Shown: positions 3,679-24,228 of the stretch, one piece after another
Layout of the letters: the number at the start of each line of letters is the position of its first letter
Numbering within the stretch: position 1 is the stretch's first letter
The notes under the pieces: generated by a model
Database searches by the model: none
What the model was told of the DNA's origin: nothing
Seen by the model: the letters and a program-made list of their open reading frames with translations, nothing else
Program-made: the position numbers and the translations under genes
Assembly (NCBI RefSeq): GCF_022899355.1
Contig: NZ_JALJCK010000007.1
Location: 62,001 to 126,000 of the forward strand
From: Shinella yambaruensis
GTDB taxonomy: Bacteria; Pseudomonadota; Alphaproteobacteria; Rhizobiales; Rhizobiaceae
Reading direction: 5' to 3'
Length of the DNA: 64,000 nt

Positions 3679-4356
3679 TTGTTCCAGCTCGACCTCTTCC
3701 TGCACGCGATCTTCAGCGCCCCCCTTTTCAAGGGGGCGCTCCTGACGATCGGCCTTTCCGTTTGTGTCATGGCCGTGTCTTTGGTGCTCGGCATGGGGCT
3801 CGGCTCCATGGCGGGCTCCCCGCGGCCGGCGGTCCGGTGGCTGGTGACGCTCTATGTCTGGCTCTTCCGCGGCGCGCCGGCCCTGCTCGTGCTGCTCTTC
3901 GTCTGGAACGGCCTGCCGCAGATTTCGGAGATCTTCCGCGCCGGCTGGTTCACGCCTTTCGTCGCGGCGTTCCTGGCACTGTCGCTCATCCAGATCGCCT
4001 ATCTGGCGGAAATCCTGCGCAGCGCCTTTGCCGCCGTCGGCCCGGGCCAGCGGGAAGGGGCGGCGGCCCTCGGCATGCATCGCTGGCAGATCTTTCTGGT
4101 CATCACCATGCCGCAGGCGCTTCGGATCGCGGTTCCCGCGCTGATGAACGAATTCATTTCCCTCCTGAAGACCACGTCGCTTGCGACCGTGATCTCGCTC
4201 AAGGAACTGATGACCGTCTCGCAGTTCGCCATCGCGACGAGCTTCCGCTTCCTCGAATGGTACGGCGCCGCGCTCGTCTACTACCTCGTCATCGTCTCGG
4301 TGCTGACGCTCGCGCAGAACCGCATCGAGCATGTGCTGTCACGCGGCTATCGCTGA
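3679..4356 (+). CDS. ABC importer permease, polar amino acid type (HisM/GlnP family)
   Basis: A 225-residue inner-membrane permease with about five hydrophobic segments. The cytoplasmic EAA loop is clear ([15 protein letters not shown]), matching His/Glu-type permeases. The start is TTG at 3679; no ATG or GTG fits the conserved N-terminus [11 protein letters not shown] better. Only one permease gene is present, so it would work as a homodimer with the ATPase that follows after 25 bases. Confidence 0.85.
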
Positions 4357-4381
4357 TCCCCGCTTCACCCACGAGTTGGAC

Positions 4382-5146
4382 ATGAACACGCAAACGAAGA
4401 CCGATCTTCCGCACAAGGCCGCGATCGAAGTGGCCGGCGTCAACAAATGGTATGGCGCTTTCCAGGTCCTGAAGGGCATCGACCTTACGGTGAACAAGGG
4501 CGAGCGCATCGTGATCTGCGGACCCTCCGGCTCCGGCAAGTCGACGCTGATCCGCTGCATGAACCGTCTCGAGGTTCACCAGGAAGGCTCGATCATCGTC
4601 AACGGCATCGAGCTCACCAACCAGCTCAAGCGCATCGACCGCGTTCGAAGCGACGTCGGCATGGTGTTTCAGCACTTCAATCTGTTTCCGCACCTGACGG
4701 TTCTCGAAAACTGCACGGTCGCCCAGCGCTGGGTGCGCAAGCTGCCGAAAAAACAGGCGACCGAGATCGCCATGAAATATCTGGAACGTGTTCATATCCC
4801 GGAAAAAGCAGACAAATATCCGGGCCAGCTCTCGGGCGGCCAGCAGCAGCGCGTCGCCATCGCGCGGGCCCTCTGCATGAACCCGAGCATCATGCTGTTC
4901 GACGAGCCCACCTCGGCGCTCGATCCCGAAATGGTCAAGGAAGTGCTGGACACGATGATTTCGCTTGCCGCCGACGGCATGACGATGGTGTGCGTCACCC
5001 ACGAAATGAATTTTGCGCGCGAAGTGGCCAGCGAAGTGGTTTTCATGGACGGTGGCCAGATCATCGAGCGCAACAAGCCGGACATACTGTTTTCGGCGCC
5101 GACACATGAGCGCACGCGGCGCTTTCTCGGCAAGCTGCTGCATTGA
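4382..5146 (+). CDS. ABC importer ATP-binding protein, polar amino acid type
   Basis: A 254-residue ATPase of the GlnQ/HisP type. Walker [10 protein letters not shown] lies at residues 47-55, the Q-loop in VFQHFNLFP near 96-103, the signature LSGGQQQ at 150-156 and Walker B IMLFDEP at 170-176, followed by the D-loop SALD and switch histidine in VTHEM. An upstream in-frame start at 4331 would overlap the permease gene by 26 bases and add 17 atypical residues, so the ATG at 4382 is preferred. It powers the importer encoded at 2821-4356. Confidence 0.9.
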
Positions 5147-5880
5147 GCGAGATCGCCATGAACAACGCTGACTGGTTTTCAACGGAAGCGATCTCGGATC
5201 GGTTGACCCGGATATACGAACCGCATGTCCACCCCTTCTTTCGGGCCAACATGTTCCACGTCGTCGGCCGTGATGCCGATCTCGTCATTGATTTCGGCAT
5301 GGGCCTCGGTAACCTTGCAAGCGTGCTGACCATTCCCCCCGGCAAACCCGTCCTTGCCGTGGCGACACACATCCATGTCGATCACGTCGGCTCGTTTCAC
5401 GAGTTCGAGAACCGGTTGGGTCATGAAGCTGAGGCCGAAGCCTTCGCGCATATGCCCGACGCCGACACGCTGGCCCCGTATTTTCGCATGCAACCGGATG
5501 TTCTCGCGCAGGTTCCGCCGATGGGCACCAGGCCCGAAGCCTATGCAATTTCACCAGCGCCGCTGACCACGATCCTGGCCGAGAATGACATCATCGACAT
5601 CGGCGACGCCTGCTACACGGTCCTGCATCTTCCCGGTCACTCCCCGGGATCGATAGGCCTCCTTGATCAGAAGACGGGGATATTCTTCAGCGGAGACGCG
5701 ATCTACGAGGGAAGTCTCGTAGACGATCTGCCCGGATGCGACATCGAGGCCTACAAGGCGAGCATGGAACGCCTGCTGCAGCTTGATCTGGAAGTCGTCT
5801 ATGGTGGTCATGGATCGAGCTTTGGACGCGCCCGTTTGCAGGAAATCGCCAAAACCTATCTGACCTCAAGGAATTCTTGA
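5143..5880 (+). CDS. Metallo-beta-lactamase-fold hydrolase
   Basis: A 245-residue MBL-fold metal hydrolase. The metal site THIHVDHVG spans residues 75-83 (His76, His78, Asp80, His81); further ligands are expected at [17 protein letters not shown] and the late VYGGHGSS. The start is either TTG 5143, overlapping the ATPase stop by four bases, or ATG 5158, which has GAGCGAGA upstream; both give the same core. Last gene of the operon from 1732. MBL enzymes in such positions cleave thioesters, lactones or amides; the substrate is unknown. Its stop is only two bases from the stop of the convergent kinase gene, leaving no room for a terminator in between. Confidence 0.8.
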
Positions 5881-5882
5881 AA

Positions 5883-7157
5883 TCAGGTATGCGGCCGAGC
5901 AACTACGAGCGGATACCATGCTTTAGGGCGGGGGCCGGTCGCTTCGATGGCAAAGCGCGAGTCGTGGAGGCTTTGAAACAGGGCGCTTACATCGCGCGCG
6001 ATGACATGCGGATCCGTTTCGGGGAAAGCGCCCGAGAGGACATACGCGGCCTCCGCCTCATCGACCGGATGTATCATGAGGTTCCAGATGCCGAGCGCGA
6101 TAGGATTGAGGTTGTTGATCGCCGCCGTGTGATCGACGCCGGCCAGAAAGGCTTCGCCTTCGACCTCGTGCATCGTCACATCCGGATTCCGGACGAGGCG
6201 CATTCCCGGCCGGTAGGGTTCGCACGACAGGTCCTGGTCGAACTCTATATCCGCCTCCGCCAGGGGATCGTGCTGCAGCAGCCGCCGGGAAAGCGCATCG
6301 GGATCGGCAAGTGGGAGGTGCTGCGGGGCCGCCGGCCAGCGGCCGAAAGCCGATGCGAGCTGTTCGGCGGCCTCCTCGAGATCGGCATAGGCAAGAACAT
6401 AGCAGGGCAGCCTCTGCACGAGTGCGCTCATCTGGGCAAGCAAGGGGCGGGCGTCCTCGGCATAGGAAACGTTCTGGCGGGCCAGCAGCTTCAGGGCGAG
6501 GCTGCGCGGCGCCGCGCGGAGGTCGGCAGGCCCACGCGGCTGGCGGTCGAGCAGGACGATCGCGCCGATGGGGGCGGTCGTTCCCTTGCGTGCGAGCCGG
6601 CCCTCGGGCAGGGCGAGATAGTGGTAGCGCCCATCCGAGGCGCCCGCGTGCCGCATGACGAAATCGCGAAAGGCCGGCGTGGCCGAAGCCGGCAGGGGCA
6701 GCCGCAGGCGTGGGGCGACGCCCAGCGCGACACCGTTGCCTTGCTCGTCGAGCGGCACGATGTCGTCGCCGAAGATCGTGTGTCCGTCCGCCGCCAGCCT
6801 TGCGGTCAGGGTGCTCTTGCCGGCATGGGAATGGCCGGGAAAGACGAGCAGCCGGCCGGCGAAAAGGGCGGCCGCGCCGTGGAGGCAGAGGCGGTGCGGA
6901 TTTTCCGTCACGAGCGCGCCGGCCAGGCTCACCATAACGTCGCAGGCCGCGGCGACCGGGGTCGTCGGGACCGGCTCCTCCTCGGGGTGGTGGACGACGA
7001 GCGAGGTGCCCCTGGCGATGATGCGGGCGATCGGCTCCTCGTCGGTTTCGACGCGGTGAAACGGCCAGTCGATCGCGGCGGCTTTCAGCGCGGCGAGAAA
7101 CGCCGGGTGATCCGGCACGTCGATGTTGGCCTTCAGTCCCTCGAATGCGAGGCGCAT
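5883..7157 (-). CDS. HPr-kinase-like protein fused to a C-terminal PqqD-like domain
   Basis: A 424-residue cytoplasmic protein. The N-terminal and middle part resembles the HPr serine kinase/phosphorylase fold: a His-rich LCLHGAAAL stretch (90-98), a P-loop GHSHAGKS (108-115) and FGDDIVPL (129-136) in place of the second HPrK phosphate-binding motif. The last ~90 residues look like a PqqD-type winged-helix, the fold that binds leader peptides of ribosomally made peptides (about 333-410, with NNLNPIALGIWNL). The start at 7157 is chosen because upstream codons are Ala-rich low-complexity read-through, and GGAG precedes this ATG. It follows the small Arg/Gly-rich protein gene after 64 bases with a hairpin between. 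HprK-related kinases with PqqD partners are known from peptide-modification contexts; here the substrate is inferred to be the neighbour. Confidence 0.75.
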   Translation of the reverse strand: MRLAFEGLKANIDVPDHPAFLAALKAAAIDWPFHRVETDEEPIARIIARGTSLVVHHPEEEPVPTTPVAAACDVMVSLAGALVTENPHRLCLHGAAALFAGRLLVFPGHSHAGKSTLTARLAADGHTIFGDDIVPLDEQGNGVALGVAPRLRLPLPASATPAFRDFVMRHAGASDGRYHYLALPEGRLARKGTTAPIGAIVLLDRQPRGPADLRAAPRSLALKLLARQNVSYAEDARPLLAQMSALVQRLPCYVLAYADLEEAAEQLASAFGRWPAAPQHLPLADPDALSRRLLQHDPLAEADIEFDQDLSCEPYRPGMRLVRNPDVTMHEVEGEAFLAGVDHTAAINNLNPIALGIWNLMIHPVDEAEAAYVLSGAFPETDPHVIARDVSALFQSLHDSRFAIEATGPRPKAWYPLVVARPHT

Positions 7158-7184
7158 GGTTCCGCTCCGTGCAATCGTCAAGCG

Positions 7185-7211
7185 GGGCGGAGCGGAAAGG
7201 CCGCTCCGCCC
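7185..7211 (-). terminator. Strong hairpin between small-protein gene and kinase gene
   Basis: GGGCGGAGCGG (7185-7195) pairs perfectly with CCGCTCCGCCC (7201-7211), an 11-bp GC stem with a 5-base loop, just downstream of the small-protein stop at 7222 (minus strand). There is no U-run, so it more likely stabilises the small-protein message or attenuates read-through into the kinase gene than ends all transcription. Confidence 0.5.
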
Positions 7212-7221
7212 GGTTCTGCGT

Positions 7222-7494
7222 TCAGGTGAAGATCGTGCGGCGCCGGGTGGTCCTGCGCCTGCGGACGCCGCTGCGGCTTCCGCCGCCGCCTCGGCGCGTG
7301 CCTCGGCCGCTGCTCCTGCGACCGCTGCCACGGCCTCCGCTTCCCCGGCTGCCGCCGCTCCTCCCGGAGGAAGCATGGGCCTCATCCAGCTTGAGCATGG
7401 CGGGTGCCATATAGGCAGTGGCGGCCGCCAGTCCCAGTCTCGTCAACATCGCGCGGCGCGACAGGCCGCCTGGCTTGGTATCTTCGATCGACAT
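7222..7494 (-). CDS. Small Tat-leader Arg/Gly/Ser-rich secreted protein
   Basis: A 90-residue protein in two parts. Residues 1-41 look like a twin-arginine signal: acidic start, LSRRAMLTRLG (11-21), a short hydrophobic stretch and HAS near 40-42. Residues 41-90 are low complexity, rich in Gly, Ser and Arg with 16 arginines, ending with Arg runs at 78-81 and 84-86 and IFT. It is extremely basic. The leader closely resembles that of the S8 protease encoded just upstream on the same strand. An ECF-type promoter sits 56 bases upstream, and a GGAAAGGAG ribosome binding site is close before the ATG (about 7500-7510). No known domain. It could be a cell-surface, nucleic-acid-binding or antimicrobial protein, or a substrate for the kinase/PqqD protein; function unknown. 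Confidence 0.7.
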   Translation of the reverse strand: MSIEDTKPGGLSRRAMLTRLGLAAATAYMAPAMLKLDEAHASSGRSGGSRGSGGRGSGRRSSGRGTRRGGGGSRSGVRRRRTTRRRTIFT

Positions 7495-7549
7495 GGTCAG
7501 CTCCTTTCCTGGTTGGAAAAGCTCCCATCCAGGGAACTTCGGCAGGGCA

Positions 7550-7575
7550 AACGCAGGCGACGCACCACCTATTCC
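7550..7575 (-). promoter_or_regulatory. ECF-type promoter before the small-protein gene
   Basis: On the minus strand GGAAT (7575-7571), a 17-base spacer and CGTT (7553-7550) match the two other ECF-type promoters of this locus; all three read GGAATA followed by a G-rich stretch. It lies between the protease stop (7592) and the small-protein start (7494), giving that gene its own sigma-dependent start. Confidence 0.65.
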
Positions 7576-7591
7576 ATGCCGCATCGAATTT

Positions 7592-8929
7592 TTATGGCTG
7601 CGCTTCGACTGCCGGCAGGATATCCGCCGGCGGCATGGCGCAGACTGCGGGCGCTTGCACGAGCCCCCAGCCGAAGGTCGTGTCGCGGCCGCCGCGACCG
7701 AGGTCCATGGCCCCGGCGGCAAGTCTGTCCACGATCTCCCGGCCCGATGCCTGTGGATCGGCCGCGCGGGCGGCGGCAAGGGCGGCCGAGACGAAGGGTG
7801 CCGCATAGGACGTGCCCGAACGGAAGCGCCCGCCACGCACCGAGGCCGCCGCCCAGACGCGCACGCCCGGGGCGGCGAAATCGATATGCTCGCCGGCTGC
7901 CGCCCGACGATAGGCGCGCAGGCGGTTGTCGACCGCGGTCACCGCGACGACGCCGGGATAGGCCGCGGGGTAGAGCGGGTCCGCCCGCGGCCCCGAATTG
8001 CCGGCGGCGGCGACGAGCACCACGTCGCGTTCGACAAGGGCGCGCACGACCCGTTCCAGCACCAGATTGGCCGGGCCGGCAAAGCTCAGATTGACGACAC
8101 GGGCCTTGCTGGCCGCAATACGATCCAGCGCGCGGGCGATGTCGAAGACGTCCGCTGCATCCTGCCCCCTGGCGTCGCTGTGGAACGCATCGACCGCGAC
8201 GAGGCGGGCACCGGAAAGCAAGCCGGGGGTGCGCGACGCCGCGCGGCCCGCAAGCAGCACCGCGATGGCGGTGCCGTGCGTGCGCGAGGACGGGCGCCTC
8301 TTCGGATCGACGACCGAGACACGCTGGAGAGCCGTTCCTGCGAGCGCCTCGTGCCCGGTGTTCACGCCGGTATCGACCATGCCGATGGTGATGTCGACGG
8401 GGCAGGCGTGCGGGGCCTCCTTCCAGCCGATCATGCCGAAGGCGGCGCATCCGTCACTGCCGCAGGCAAGCTCGTTGGTCCGGTAGATATGGTTCGGGTC
8501 GACAAGGGCGGATGGAACGAGCTGGAGGATTTCGGTGCGGGCCTGTTCGATCGTGCGGTTCTGCGGCAGCGTGAAGCGGGCAATCTCTGCGTCGAGCAGA
8601 CCGAGCCGGTCGCGGACGACGAGGCCATATCCCTGCGCGGTGATGAGGTCGATCGCGGCCGGCGAGGGCGCGGCGACGACGATCTCCGGGCGGGGCCTGC
8701 GGGCACGCGGGCGCTGCCGTCGCGGCCGGGGAGAGCTTCTCCCCGAGCCCCCGTCGCGCGAGGAGCGCCCGACGGAGGAGCTGCCCCCGGAGGAGGATGC
8801 TCGCGCGGAACCGAGCCCCAGGAGGGCCGGCGCGGCATAGGCAAGTCCGGTGGCGATGCCCAGCCTTTGCAGCATGCGGCGCCTGGTCAGTTCCGCTGCG
8901 CCGTGCCGGTTTCCATCGTCTTTTCCCAT
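7592..8929 (-). CDS. S8 (subtilisin-like) serine protease with Tat-type leader
   Basis: A 445-residue secreted protease. The leader carries LTRRRMLQRLG (14-24), then a hydrophobic stretch to about residue 45. Residues 46-80 are Ser/Gly/Arg/Pro-rich. The catalytic domain follows, with Asp186 in GMVDTGVN, His218 in RTHGTAIA, oxyanion Asn311 in AAAGNSG and nucleophile Ser374 in RSGTSYAAP. Cysteines near 156 and 161 could form a disulphide. An AGGAG ribosome binding site precedes the ATG by 7 bases, and a GGAAT-N16-CGTT promoter lies just upstream. The divergent neighbour is an ECF sigma gene; downstream are a small protein with a related leader and the kinase/PqqD gene. It probably processes exported proteins, perhaps its small neighbour; target unproven. 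Confidence 0.88.
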   Translation of the reverse strand: MGKDDGNRHGAAELTRRRMLQRLGIATGLAYAAPALLGLGSARASSSGGSSSVGRSSRDGGSGRSSPRPRRQRPRARRPRPEIVVAAPSPAAIDLITAQGYGLVVRDRLGLLDAEIARFTLPQNRTIEQARTEILQLVPSALVDPNHIYRTNELACGSDGCAAFGMIGWKEAPHACPVDITIGMVDTGVNTGHEALAGTALQRVSVVDPKRRPSSRTHGTAIAVLLAGRAASRTPGLLSGARLVAVDAFHSDARGQDAADVFDIARALDRIAASKARVVNLSFAGPANLVLERVVRALVERDVVLVAAAGNSGPRADPLYPAAYPGVVAVTAVDNRLRAYRRAAAGEHIDFAAPGVRVWAAASVRGGRFRSGTSYAAPFVSAALAAARAADPQASGREIVDRLAAGAMDLGRGGRDTTFGWGLVQAPAVCAMPPADILPAVEAQP

Positions 8930-8962
8930 ATCGAGGCTCCTGAATTCGACAATAGAGACGAA

Positions 8963-8987
8963 AACGTCGCAGGCTCACCTCTATTCC
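8963..8987 (-). promoter_or_regulatory. ECF-type promoter before the S8 protease gene
   Basis: On the minus strand GGAAT (8987-8983), a 16-base spacer and CGTT (8966-8963) lie 33 bases before the protease start. This matches the alphaproteobacterial ECF/EcfG-like pattern GGAAC/T-N16-17-CGTT and pairs with a mirror promoter for the sigma gene. Confidence 0.65.
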
Positions 8988-9014
8988 AGACAGGGGGAAT
9001 TTTCATGCGCGGCT

Positions 9015-9040
9015 GGAATAAGGGTGGCGTCTTCGGCGTT
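9015..9040 (+). promoter_or_regulatory. ECF-type promoter before the sigma factor gene (autoregulation)
   Basis: GGAAT (9015-9019), a 17-base spacer and CGTT (9037-9040) lie 22 bases before the sigma ATG at 9063. A GAGGA ribosome binding site is at 9048-9052, so the predicted leader is very short. Its likeness to the two promoters on the opposite strand implies the sigma factor drives its own gene and the facing operon. Confidence 0.65.
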
Positions 9041-9062
9041 CTTGGGCGAGGACGGATAGTGT

Positions 9063-9581
9063 ATGGCGGATTTCGGATATGACATCGTGGCGCTGCTGCC
9101 GAGGCTTCGGGGCCTCGCGCGCACCCTGACGCGTTCTCGCGATGCAGCCGACGATCTCGTGCAGGCGGCGTGCGAGAAGGCGTTGCGGCATCGCGAAAGC
9201 TGGACGCCCGGCACGCGGCTCGATGCGTGGCTCTTCCGTATCATGCGCAACCATTGGGTCGACACGATGCGCCGCAGCCGGCCCGACATGCCGATCGACG
9301 ACGGCGGCGCCGAGATGGCCTTGCCGACGGAAGATGGCCGAAGGGTGGTCGAGGCGCGTCTTGCGCTTGCGGAGGTCCGGCGCGTCGCCGATTCCCTGCC
9401 GGACGAACAGCGCGCCGTGCTTCTGCTCGTATGCGTCGAGGACCTGACCTATCGGGAGGCCGCCGAAATGCTGGATGTTCCGATCGGCACGGTGATGAGC
9501 CGGCTGGCGCGTGCGCGTGTGGCGCTGGTCGCGGCTATGGAAGGCGATGTCCCCGCGCGGGCAGGTGGAGAACGGTCATGA
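9063..9581 (+). CDS. ECF-family RNA polymerase sigma factor
   Basis: A 172-residue group IV sigma factor. Region 2 spans about residues 10-75 (SRDAADDLVQAACEKAL, WLFRIMRNHWVD); region 4 spans about 112-160 (LPDEQRAVLLLVC, LTYREAAEMLDVPIGTVMSR). No region 1.1 or 3, as normal for ECF factors. Its stop overlaps the anti-sigma start by four bases (ATGA). It faces the S8 protease gene across a 133-base spacer containing two back-to-back ECF-type promoters, so the protease, small-protein and kinase genes are the likely regulon. The inducing signal is not evident. Confidence 0.92.
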   Translation: MADFGYDIVALLPRLRGLARTLTRSRDAADDLVQAACEKALRHRESWTPGTRLDAWLFRIMRNHWVDTMRRSRPDMPIDDGGAEMALPTEDGRRVVEARLALAEVRRVADSLPDEQRAVLLLVCVEDLTYREAAEMLDVPIGTVMSRLARARVALVAAMEGDVPARAGGERS

Positions 9582-10279
9582 CAGGAAAGGTGACGGACGA
9601 GATGCTGATGGCGTTTGTCGATGGCGAGACCGACGAGACCACCCGCGCGGCCATCGAGCGTGCGCTTGCCGCCGATGCCGCCCTTGCCGCCCGTGCCAAG
9701 CTGTTTCACGGCAGCCGTACCTTGCTGCGCGAAGCGTTCGGCGATGCGCGGCGGGAGGAGGTGCCCCCGGCACTGATCGAGGCGGTGCTCGGCCGCCGCG
9801 ACAATGTCGTTCCGTTGCGGAGCCGGATCCGGGCCCGATTCGCCCTGCCGCTTGCCGCCTCTCTCCTGCTTGTCGTCGGGGGGGCCGGTTATCTCGCCGG
9901 CCGGACGGGCGCCGGCAATGACGATCCCCTCGGCCGCGCCGCAATCGCCGAAGCGCTTTCGGCCACCCGGTCGGGAGAGGAGCGCTCGATTTCCCTTGCA
10001 GGCGAGAGTGCACGCTTCGAGACGCTTGCCACCTATCGGGTCGAGGGCGGAATCTGCCGCAGCTTCGATATCGGGGGGGCGCGCGCATCGCTGACCGGGA
10101 TCGGCTGCGACCGCGGAACGGGCTGGACAGTGGAGCTCACCGTCGAACGGAGCGGCGGCAATGCCTATGCGCCGGCATCCGACGCCGCGCTTCAAAGCGT
10201 TGACGCTTACCTCGATGCGCTCGGCGTGTCGGATCCGCTGACGGCTGACGAGGAGGCGGGCATCCAGGGCCGTGAATAG
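9578..10279 (+). CDS. Membrane anti-sigma factor
   Basis: A 233-residue single-pass membrane protein. Residues 1-55 form the cytoplasmic sigma-binding part (VTDEMLMAFVDGETDETTRAA, typical of anti-sigma N-termini) without the zinc-binding HxxxCxxC motif, so it is not a redox-zinc type. One hydrophobic helix lies near residues 88-108 (LPLAASLLLVVGGAGYLAG). The rest is a periplasmic domain with two cysteines (in the IC/GC segments), the likely sensor. Translational coupling to the sigma gene fixes its partner. Release could occur through proteolysis or a conformational change; whether the neighbouring protease takes part is speculation. Confidence 0.85.
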   Translation: MTGKVTDEMLMAFVDGETDETTRAAIERALAADAALAARAKLFHGSRTLLREAFGDARREEVPPALIEAVLGRRDNVVPLRSRIRARFALPLAASLLLVVGGAGYLAGRTGAGNDDPLGRAAIAEALSATRSGEERSISLAGESARFETLATYRVEGGICRSFDIGGARASLTGIGCDRGTGWTVELTVERSGGNAYAPASDAALQSVDAYLDALGVSDPLTADEEAGIQGRE

Positions 10280-22623: not shown

Positions 22624-24228
22624 CTAGCCTGCATTCAAGAAAGGAACATTCTCGCGCAGATGGATGACCGTCGGGCCGTCTGCAGTGAAGGCGATCCTTA
22701 CCGCGGCTTCCAGTTCCTCGAAGCTTTTCGGCTCGGCGGTCTGGCAGCCATAGGCCTCGGCGAGCTTCACGAAATCCGGATTGTGCTGGTTGACGCCGAT
22801 GGTCGGGATGTCGCGGGCGAGCATGCCGTCGCGGATCTGGGCGAGGCTGTCGTTGTTCCACAGGATGATGGCGAGCGGCAGCCTGTTCTCCACCGCCGTG
22901 CCGAGTTCCTGAAGCGTGAACTGGAAGCCGCCGTCGCCGACGATGACGGCGACGGGCGTCTTGGGGCTTGCGATCTTGCCGCCGATCGCCGCGGGTAGCG
23001 CATAGCCCAGCGTGCCGAAACCGGCCGGGAAATGCCAGGTGCGCGGCAGGGCGCTGCGATAGAAGGCGTAGCCGGTGTAGGCGAGCTGCGTCATGTCGGT
23101 GTAGACGACGCCGTCGTCGGGTATGGCGTTGCGCAGGCTGTCGAGCACGCGCACGTGCTTCTGTTCGAGCGGCGTCAGCGCGGTGCGTTCGGCGGCGCGC
23201 AGTTCGGCGATGGCGTTGGAATTCCTGAAGCCCTCGGCCGGCGCGACCTTTTCGACGATGGCCGCCAGCGCCAGTTTCGAATCCGCCTCCATGGCGACGT
23301 CCACGTCGTAGTCGCGCACCAGCGTCGCCGGGTCGATGTCGATGCGGATCAGCCTGCCGTCCATGGGCAGCGGGCCGTCGAGCCAGATGTCGGGTTCCGC
23401 AAGCTCGGTGCCGACGAGCAGCACGGCATCCGCCTCGCGCACGAAAGCCTGGGTCACGCCGCGGTCAACCGTCACCTCCAGCGCAAGCGGATGGTCGTCG
23501 GGCAGGATGCCCTTGGCCGCGATGGTCGGAACCACCGCCGCGCCGACCTTCTCCGCCAGCGCCTTGACCTCGGCGGCGGCCGAGACCGCGCCGCCGCCGG
23601 CAAGGATCACCGGCCGTCTGGCGGCATCGAGGATGGCGGCGGCGGCCTCGACCTGCGCGGCGTCGGGCGCGCGGCGGCGGGCGGTGGTGCGTCGGCTCGC
23701 CGGCTTGTCGTCCGGCGCCTTGAAGACATCGAGCGGGATGGAGAGATGGACGGGGCGCGGGCGGCCGCTGTCGAAGAGCGCGAAGGCGCGGGCGATGTAT
23801 TCGCGCACCTGTTCGGGGCTGCCCGCCGTTTCGGAGAAGGCGGTGAGGGGACGGGTGACGGCGGACTGGTCGGTGATCTCGTGCAGCGTGCCGCGGCCCA
23901 TGCCGAGATCCTTGTTGGCGGCGACGGAGGTGATGACGAGCATCGGCACGCTGTCGGAATAGGCCTGGCCGATCGGCGTTGCGGCATTGGTGACGCCGGG
24001 GCCGGAGATCAGGATGCAGACGCCCGGCTTGCCCGACATTCGGGCATAGCCGTCGGCCATGAAGCCGGCGCCCTGTTCGTGGCGCACGCCGATATGGCGG
24101 ATTCCGGCGGCCTCCATGCCGCGATAGGCTTCGAGCGTGTGCACGCCCGGCATGCCGAAGACGGTGTCGACGCCATAGGCCTTCAGGATCTGCATCAGGC
24201 GGCTGCCGCAGGAAATGGTCTCGTTCAT
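22624..24228 (-). CDS. ThDP-dependent 2-oxoacid decarboxylase, 5-guanidino-2-oxopentanoate decarboxylase-like
   Basis: A 534-residue enzyme of the acetolactate-synthase-like family. The N-terminal PYR domain has GMPGVHTLEAYRG and catalytic Glu51 in RHEQGAGFMADGYAR; a central domain follows; the PP domain holds the ThDP/metal motif VGDGGFQFTLQELGTAV ending LWNND. The GVHT start and RHEQGAGFMADGYAR pattern match proteins named 5-guanidino-2-oxopentanoate decarboxylase (AruI). It would turn a 2-oxoacid into an aldehyde. Last gene of the eight-gene minus-strand operon. Guanidino substrates fit the polyamine-type importer, but this is not proven. Confidence 0.8.
   Translation of the reverse strand: MNETISCGSRLMQILKAYGVDTVFGMPGVHTLEAYRGMEAAGIRHIGVRHEQGAGFMADGYARMSGKPGVCILISGPGVTNAATPIGQAYSDSVPMLVITSVAANKDLGMGRGTLHEITDQSAVTRPLTAFSETAGSPEQVREYIARAFALFDSGRPRPVHLSIPLDVFKAPDDKPASRRTTARRRAPDAAQVEAAAAILDAARRPVILAGGGAVSAAAEVKALAEKVGAAVVPTIAAKGILPDDHPLALEVTVDRGVTQAFVREADAVLLVGTELAEPDIWLDGPLPMDGRLIRIDIDPATLVRDYDVDVAMEADSKLALAAIVEKVAPAEGFRNSNAIAELRAAERTALTPLEQKHVRVLDSLRNAIPDDGVVYTDMTQLAYTGYAFYRSALPRTWHFPAGFGTLGYALPAAIGGKIASPKTPVAVIVGDGGFQFTLQELGTAVENRLPLAIILWNNDSLAQIRDGMLARDIPTIGVNQHNPDFVKLAEAYGCQTAEPKSFEELEAAVRIAFTADGPTVIHLRENVPFLNAG

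What the first reader, a model, noticed from the sequence alone, without database searches (positions are those of the whole stretch)
5883..10279. ECF sigma/anti-sigma locus controlling a subtilisin, a basic small protein and a kinase with PqqD-like domain
Seen: an ECF sigma and membrane anti-sigma pair diverges from an S8 protease gene, a 90-residue Arg/Gly/Ser-rich gene with Tat-type leader, and a HprK-like/PqqD-like fusion, all in one block between ordinary catabolic operons. Known: HprK-related kinases and PqqD-type domains occur in peptide-modification systems; S8 proteases mature or cleave peptides. Inference: a stress-induced system in which the small protein is bound through its leader by the PqqD-like part, phosphorylated on Ser/Thr, exported by Tat and cut by the protease. 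I know of no description of this exact set.
Basis: partly seen in the sequence, partly recalled or inferred. Interest (0 to 1): 0.85.

Follow-up and report, generated by a model that had tools for sequence, protein, structure and literature searches.

The report
Kinase modifying Tat-exported repeat protein
Bacteria of several groups carry a gene pair in which a small exported repeat protein seems to be grabbed by its export signal and tagged with phosphate by a kinase before leaving the cell; here the pair is joined by a similarly addressed protease and a shared switch, which would be a new way of coupling protein modification to export.

Summary
In detail: all five genes lie where stated. The conserved core is a gene pair: a 70-173 aa Tat-leader protein with a Ser/Thr-rich, often tandem-repeat tail, directly upstream of a 424 aa fusion of an HprK/PEPCK-fold kinase and a PqqD-type peptide-binding domain (RRE). 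The pair shows by profile in 77 of 80 related loci; the other 3, cut by contig ends, keep its remains.

New here: the Tat signal peptide carries the lasso-type RRE motif YxxPx[L/M/V/F] at near-fixed spacing, in 76 of 76 small proteins and 15 of 15 leader-bearing S8 proteases. The RRE resembles lasso B1 proteins and keeps the Asp that binds the leader Tyr in LppB (78 of 78); the kinase keeps H/GKS/DD (78 of 78).

GGAATR-N14-17-CGTT precedes S8 (26/27), small-kinase (24/24) and sigma (17/21) genes, pointing to one ECF regulon.

Most likely: the RRE holds the Tat leader, the kinase phosphorylates the tail, then Tat exports it. Binding, phosphorylation and the S8's role are inferred. S8 and ECF are accessory. 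Neither lasso nor LPP cluster: a new variant of leader-guided HprK phosphorylation.

The parts
5883..7157 (-). HprK/PEPCK-fold kinase fused to a C-terminal lasso-B1-like RRE (PqqD) domain, 424 aa; start ATG at 7157
6354..6914 (-). HprK-like kinase core (residues 82-268): H93, GKS113-115, DD131-132, R150, R205 invariant
5943..6200 (-). RRE (PqqD-like) domain, about residues 320-405; W358 and D389 identical in 78 of 78 compared
   Evidence: pocket residues from PMC13381572 section 8
7222..7494 (-). small Tat-leader protein (90 aa), proposed kinase substrate; tail rich in S/R/G
7396..7413 (-). YMAPAM = YxxPx[L/M] RRE motif inside the Tat signal peptide of the small protein
7592..8929 (-). S8 subtilase (445 aa) with the same kind of Tat/RRE leader and an R/S-rich spacer
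8825..8842 (-). YAAPAL = RRE motif inside the S8 Tat leader
   Evidence: row 2; Y and P invariant in all rows
9063..9581 (+). ECF sigma factor (172 aa)
9578..10279 (+). membrane anti-sigma factor (233 aa, one apparent transmembrane stretch by eye)
7550..7575 (-). ECF-type promoter-like site GGAATA-N16-CGTT before small protein + kinase
8963..8987 (-). ECF-type promoter-like site GGAATA-N15-CGTT before the S8 gene
9015..9040 (+). ECF-type promoter-like site GGAATA-N16-CGTT before sigma/anti-sigma

Best explanation
This is an export-coupled, leader-guided phosphorylation system. The Tat signal peptide of the small protein doubles as a RiPP-type leader: its hydrophobic/C-region holds YxxPx[L/M], which the C-terminal RRE domain of the kinase binds in the cytoplasm. 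The HprK-like domain then phosphorylates Ser/Thr in the repeat-rich tail. On release, Tat exports the protein, and signal peptidase cuts at the conserved AxA and so removes the RRE motif. In this genome the S8 protease bears the same kind of leader, so it is probably a second client (its R/S-rich spacer may be phosphorylated, or the RRE only chaperones its export). The ECF sigma/anti-sigma pair switches on its own genes, the S8 and the small-kinase operon through one promoter type. Shown by sequence: gene linkage, leader motif, predicted RRE and kinase folds and key residues, promoter-like sites. Inferred: binding, phosphorylation, order of steps, S8 role, promoter function, inducer.
For: Small leader gene beside the kinase by profile in 77 of 80 loci, remains in the other 3, and 12 of 13 full-length family loci, 2 of them shared records. 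All 14 of 247 same-family genomes (own included) with the RRE-kinase have a leader protein, against 3 of the 233 others, 2 of these weak and on unrelated proteins. 11 loci of weaker HprK relatives have none. Only R, R, Y and P are invariant in 57 leaders; YxxPx[LMFVI] in 76/76 small, 15/15 S8 and 11/11 downstream Tat leaders. In the own genome the leader profile finds small (61.7 bits) and S8 (55.1), next 18.0 (both are rows of that model); with no window rows a model still gives 49.5 and 48.8 bits against 3.2 for the next window ORF. RRE closest to TbiB1, TfuB1, LppB, PbaB1 (fold 5v1v); the Asp that binds the leader Tyr in LppB is D389, 78 of 78. Kinase residues and spacing as in BsfK, whose activity an RRE boosts (PMC10368454). 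Tails 28% S+T against 9% in the kinases. Promoter-like sites: S8 26/27, small 24/24, sigma 17/21 genes, but 1 of 60 small genes in loci without the S8/ECF partners. Two genomes keep a leader-type S8 with the site, unlinked to the kinase.
Against: No biochemistry. 9 of 76 tails are under 15% Ser+Thr (minimum 8%), mostly Halomonas tails rich in His/Arg/Asp, so phosphorylation of the tail may not be the common denominator. Tails differ between clades. Tat export was not predicted by a dedicated program. The leader seed pattern required RR and AP (not Y), so part of the motif was imposed in building the model, though the loci left little to miss. The promoter count has misses: 4 of 21 sigma genes and 1 of 27 S8 genes lack the site.
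Confidence: 0.72

Rival explanations
1. The RRE-kinase is mainly a Tat proofreading chaperone: it binds the signal peptide and uses ATP to time release; any phosphorylation of the tail is absent or minor.
For: RRE motif sits in the Tat signal itself; some tails are poor in Ser/Thr; the S8 shares the leader.
Against: The HprK catalytic set is identical in 78 of 78; 67 of 76 tails have 15% or more S+T; close analogues are real peptide kinases (PMC10368454 section 23; PMC13381572 passages).
Confidence: 0.13
2. The main client is the S8 protease: the small protein is a carrier or inhibitor/propeptide mimic (leader plus S8-like spacer) that controls the S8, and the S8 in turn may cleave the anti-sigma.
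For: S8 and small protein share leader and Arg/Ser-rich segment; all 13 loci with a relative of the sigma gene also hold an S8.
Against: In 63 of 80 loci, including every Halomonas and Vreelandella locus, small + kinase stand without an S8 over 40 bits in the stretch fetched (some stretches are short); in several loci the S8 has a Sec-like N-terminus and no leader.
Confidence: 0.08
3. The S8 is the maturation protease that releases phosphopeptides from the exported small protein. It is compatible with the best explanation, as an added step.
For: Shared promoter type and shared leader; leader-type S8 kept even when unlinked.
Against: No S8 found in 63 of 80 loci; tails differ between clades and no common cleavage site was seen by eye (none was searched for).
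Confidence: 0.3

Closest known systems
Linear polyphosphorylated peptides (LPPs) of Bacillota, lpp clusters (PMC13381572; sections 8 and 9 and search passages seen)
   Same: RRE + HprK-like kinase; precursors 35-200 aa with conserved N-terminus, YxxPxV motif and highly variable C-terminus; leader removed by a signal-peptidase-like enzyme; linear product
   Different: LppB is a discrete RRE, here fused to the kinase; LPP clusters have SpI, NTP transferase and MsbA-like exporter; here the leader is a Tat signal, no such gene is among the 12 genes scanned, and an S8 and ECF pair accompany it
Phosphorylated lasso peptides (BsfK/BsfB1, PMC10368454: section 23 and passages seen; paeninodin only as cited there)
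   Same: HprK-like kinase with H-GKS-DD and lasso-B1 RRE recognising YxxPxL
   Different: no lasso B2 leader peptidase match in the genome (PF13471); Asn-synthase matches only on other contigs
HprK_rel_A / HprK_rel_B (TIGR04352, TIGR04355)
   Same: partial match over the kinase core
   Different: 49 and 18 bits against cut-offs of 200; weaker HprK relatives in the family lack the leader protein
Tat proofreading chaperones (DmsD/TorD type; recalled, no call)
   Same: a cytoplasmic protein binding a Tat signal peptide before export
   Different: unrelated fold (recalled); here binding would be by an RRE and coupled to a kinase

Membership tests
Lasso-B1 / PqqD-type RRE | wHTH RRE fold | tested here: met
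   profile vs TbiB1 E 5.4e-10; 5v1v_A TM by target 0.84, rmsd 2.9
Lasso-B1 / PqqD-type RRE | Tyr-pocket residues, incl. the Asp bonding the leader Tyr (LppB D70) | tested here: met
   D389 78/78, W358 78/78, F378 74/78, L374 73/78; L350 54/78 (24 Met), I357 42/78 (29 Val); aligned; pocket
Lasso-B1 / PqqD-type RRE | physical binding of the leader | not testable with these tools
   only suggestive: strand F24-D28 right after YVAPT in a small+kinase model
HprK-type peptide kinase | PEPCK/HprK fold with His, GKS, Asp-Asp | tested here: met
HprK-type peptide kinase | phosphoryl transfer to Ser/Thr of a peptide | not testable with these tools
   needs mass spectrometry
HprK_rel_A (TIGR04352) | score over the curated cut-off | tested here: not met
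   49.1 against 200 bits
Lasso peptide cluster | B2 leader peptidase (Transglut_core3) | tested here: not met
   no match in own genome at E <= 0.001
Lasso peptide cluster | linked Asn-synthase-like cyclase | tested here: not met
   three PF00733 matches in the genome, all on other contigs
LPP cluster | discrete RRE gene plus separate kinase | tested here: not met
   fused in the window and in all 34 rows of A1, which cover 58 of 58 RRE columns; only PF05402 match in the own genome
LPP cluster | precursor with YxxPx[V/L...] leader and variable tail | tested here: met
LPP cluster | linked SpI, NTP transferase and MsbA-like exporter | tested here: inconclusive
   not among the Pfam domains of the 12 genes scanned at 2.8-13.7 kb, where the ABC genes are an SBP_bac_3-type transporter and an ABC-TOBE ATPase; not searched genome-wide
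Tat substrate | twin-arginine motif, hydrophobic stretch, AxA site, Tat machinery present | tested here: met
   TatC in own genome; export itself not tested

The most novel reading that the evidence does not exclude
A Tat signal peptide has become a RiPP leader: one peptide segment is read first by an RRE-kinase fusion and then by the Tat machinery, so phosphorylation of a repeat protein is licensed before export. It would be a secreted-phosphoprotein pathway in Gram-negative bacteria, with a protease addressed by the same tag and an ECF regulon around it.
Probability: 0.6. Interest if true: 0.87.

Novelty: new variant of a known kind. Interest (0 to 1): 0.8.

Why it matters
RiPP leaders and export signals are normally treated as separate elements (general knowledge). 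Here one conserved segment of about 30 residues appears to serve both, which would link peptide modification to the Tat pathway and give Gram-negative bacteria a dedicated route to exported Ser/Thr-phosphorylated repeat proteins. The invariant Y and P in a Tat signal, the conserved Tyr-binding Asp in the RRE and the two-gene core make it directly testable by co-expression in E. coli. It would also give a function to proteins that databases now call 'PqqD family protein' or 'PqqD family peptide modification chaperone' (names seen).

Tried and rejected
Lasso peptide cluster: rejected. Generic Tat leader: rejected; in the own genome only small and S8 match the leader profile strongly, and among 8832 ORFs of the 80 loci the matches over 8 bits outside the small, S8 and downstream leader genes were weak (8.2, 9.0, 11.3, 15.2). 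Obligate five-gene unit: rejected. Fourth promoter-like site at 23956: lies inside a coding ORF on the opposite strand, taken as chance. Single-sequence scan of genome contigs found nothing; the profile scan worked. Family clusters 1 and 2 were (nearly all) antisense ORFs over the kinase gene, and cluster 4 mixed sigma factors with other genes, so the sigma count uses the direct comparison. The phmmer hits of the window's small protein in 67 loci were not used, being open to low-complexity matches. A search of the protein database with the first 48 residues of the small protein gave only 5 proteins: that route is too insensitive. Literature: 9 of 10 searches used; searches listed no paper that, from title and abstract start, describes an RRE-kinase with a Tat-type leader; only three papers were looked into, and only open-licence PMC papers are held. 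PMC12710340 (passages only): its main text holds neither 'kinase' nor 'Tat'. The PDB realignment covered mostly residues 1-351, so it does not test the RRE; that rests.
Full report
WHAT IS THERE. The five genes are real and placed as stated: kinase-PqqD fusion 5883-7157 (-), small 90 aa protein 7222-7494 (-), S8 subtilase 7592-8929 (-), ECF sigma 9063-9581 (+), anti-sigma 9578-10279 (+). Flanking genes are ordinary: SBP_bac_3-type ABC transporter genes, metallo-beta-lactamase-fold protein, aminotransferase, SDR, another ABC ATPase. Pfam finds PqqD at residues 349-401 of the fusion just at its cut-off and HprK only weakly; NCBIfam gives HprK_rel_A at 49 bits, well under its cut-off. Of 94 homologues found in a protein database, 90 carry PF05402.

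THE CORE IS A GENE PAIR. A profile of 34 kinases found 135 relatives among species genomes; the best 80 were kept as loci L002-L081 and only these were analysed. They come from Rhodobacteraceae, Rhizobiales, Rhodospirillales, Halomonas/Vreelandella, Limnobacter, Ectothiorhodospiraceae, a few other Gammaproteobacteria and one MAG labelled Desulfovibrio. A small gene with a Tat-type leader lies directly upstream of the kinase by profile in 77 of 80. The other 3 are cut by contig ends: L008 begins inside the leader, which still reads TRRK...AYSVPAV, and L020 and L076 keep only tail-like sequence (by eye). For the 76 loci measured, the distance between small stop codon and kinase ORF start ranges from overlap to 159 bases. 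Over 247 same-family genomes, own included, all 14 with the RRE-kinase (matches at about 1e-19 or better) have a leader protein; of the other 233, 3 have a leader match, one strong but at a contig edge (G011) and two weak ones on unrelated proteins. Eleven loci of weaker HprK relatives have no leader gene (best 7.8 bits). The system is patchy: 3 other genomes of the same genus lack it.

THE LEADER. In 57 aligned leaders (46 of small proteins and 11 of S8, the window's two among them) the only invariant columns are the two arginines, a Tyr and a Pro; the AxA alanines are nearly invariant. The pattern YxxPx[L/M/F/V/I] is in 76 of 76 small leaders, 15 of 15 leader-bearing S8 and 11 of 11 second Tat proteins downstream of the kinase, with Tyr 14-16 residues after the first arginine. 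The seed pattern had required RR and AP but not Y. A model built without any window sequence scores the window's small protein and S8 at 49.5 and 48.8 bits, the next of 778 window ORFs at 3.2. In the whole own genome the two score 61.7 and 55.1 bits, the next 18.0 (these two are rows of that model). This is the motif that lasso-type RREs bind: Tyr(-17), Pro(-14), Leu(-12) in lasso leaders (PMC10368454, passages) and [Y/W]xxPx[L/V/I/F/A] (PMC13381572, passages and sections 8-9).

THE TAILS. They differ between clades: SRPSY repeats in Halomonas, GSGGR, SEP, SKTTT, SDA, RYTRPT elsewhere. Mean S+T is 28% (range 8-60%) against 9% in the kinases; 44 of 76 have perfect tandem repeats and 42 of these contain S or T. 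Nine of 76 tails fall under 15% S+T, mostly Halomonas tails rich in His, Arg and Asp. That is the main result against tail phosphorylation as the universal purpose.

THE S8 AND THE ECF PAIR. S8 with the RRE-type leader: 15 of 80 loci; S8 without it: 2 of 80 (L025, L056); relative of the window's sigma in 13 of 80, each with an S8; anti-sigma in 12 of 80, since the sigma gene of L041 is cut by the contig end. In L002-L005 the leader-type S8 stands without a sigma gene in the stretch. In the family set: S8 in 9 of 13, ECF pair in 7 of 13. In the 9 leaderless cases looked at, the S8 has a Sec-like N-terminus by eye, in 8 followed by an Asp-rich stretch (the excerpt of L025 ended too early to tell). 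In two genomes a leader-type S8 lies 1.2 Mb from the kinase or on another contig but keeps leader and promoter-like site. GGAATA-N15-17-CGTT occurs 4 times in the window (0.12 expected from shuffles), 3 times in exactly the three gaps of the locus; in the own genome the 15-16 spacing occurs 20 times against 4 for the reversed pattern, so not every match need be a promoter. In 27 loci, window included, the looser GGAATR-N14-17-CGTT stands before 26 of 27 S8, 24 of 24 small and 17 of 21 sigma genes, and 17 times elsewhere in 407 kb (span searched 350 bases, 600 for S8). In the 4 sigma genes without it (L120, L122, L124, L129) a site lies near the 3' end of the sigma gene instead, ahead of the anti-sigma. 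Before small genes in loci without the S8/ECF partners it is found in 1 of 60. So the sigma most likely drives all three transcripts; induction conditions are unknown.

MECHANISM. RRE binds YxxP in the Tat leader; the kinase phosphorylates the tail in the cytoplasm; Tat export and AxA cleavage follow. This is the LPP logic (RRE, HprK, signal-peptidase cleavage) with the Tat pathway in place of a dedicated exporter. The S8 shares the address tag in part of the family; whether it is only a second client or also processes the small protein stays open.

NOVELTY. Individual parts are known; the combination of RRE-HprK fusion, leader merged with a Tat signal, and ECF/S8 regulon was not seen in the listings of 9 searches of open-licence full texts. 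I file it as a new variant of leader-guided HprK phosphorylation, not as a lasso or LPP cluster.

Noticed in passing
L007, L008, L010, L011, L012, L018, L023, L036, L039, L054, L055, downstream of the kinase: A second Tat-leader protein with the YxxP motif follows the kinase in 11 of 80 loci, in L008, L012 and L018 followed by a response-regulator-like gene; a possible second client.
   Followed up: partly
L165 (about 4249-6000) and L166 (about 4906-6234): Leader-bearing S8 with its ECF-type promoter-like site at a place unlinked to the kinase in two genomes.
   Followed up: yes
L117/L125 and L118/L127: Two genomes carry two divergent copies of the system: one with RRSFS repeats and leader-type S8, one with Gly/Ser tails, leaderless S8 and the ECF pair.
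   Followed up: partly
L167 72-581: Small leader protein with KSKKS/RRSRR repeats and an ECF-type promoter-like site at a contig edge in a genome without a detected kinase.
   Followed up: partly
L120, L122, L124, L129 (and L119, L125, L127): A GGAATR-CGTT site near the 3' end of the sigma gene, as if the anti-sigma had its own promoter.
   Followed up: partly
L160 5054-6304: HprK-related protein with the reverse order, a PqqD-like segment first (by eye) and kinase second, and no Tat-leader gene nearby.
   Followed up: no
Halomonas/Vreelandella loci such as L022, L058, L081: Many small-protein tails end in ...RW (for example PPRW, LPRW, PDRW), function unknown.
   Followed up: no
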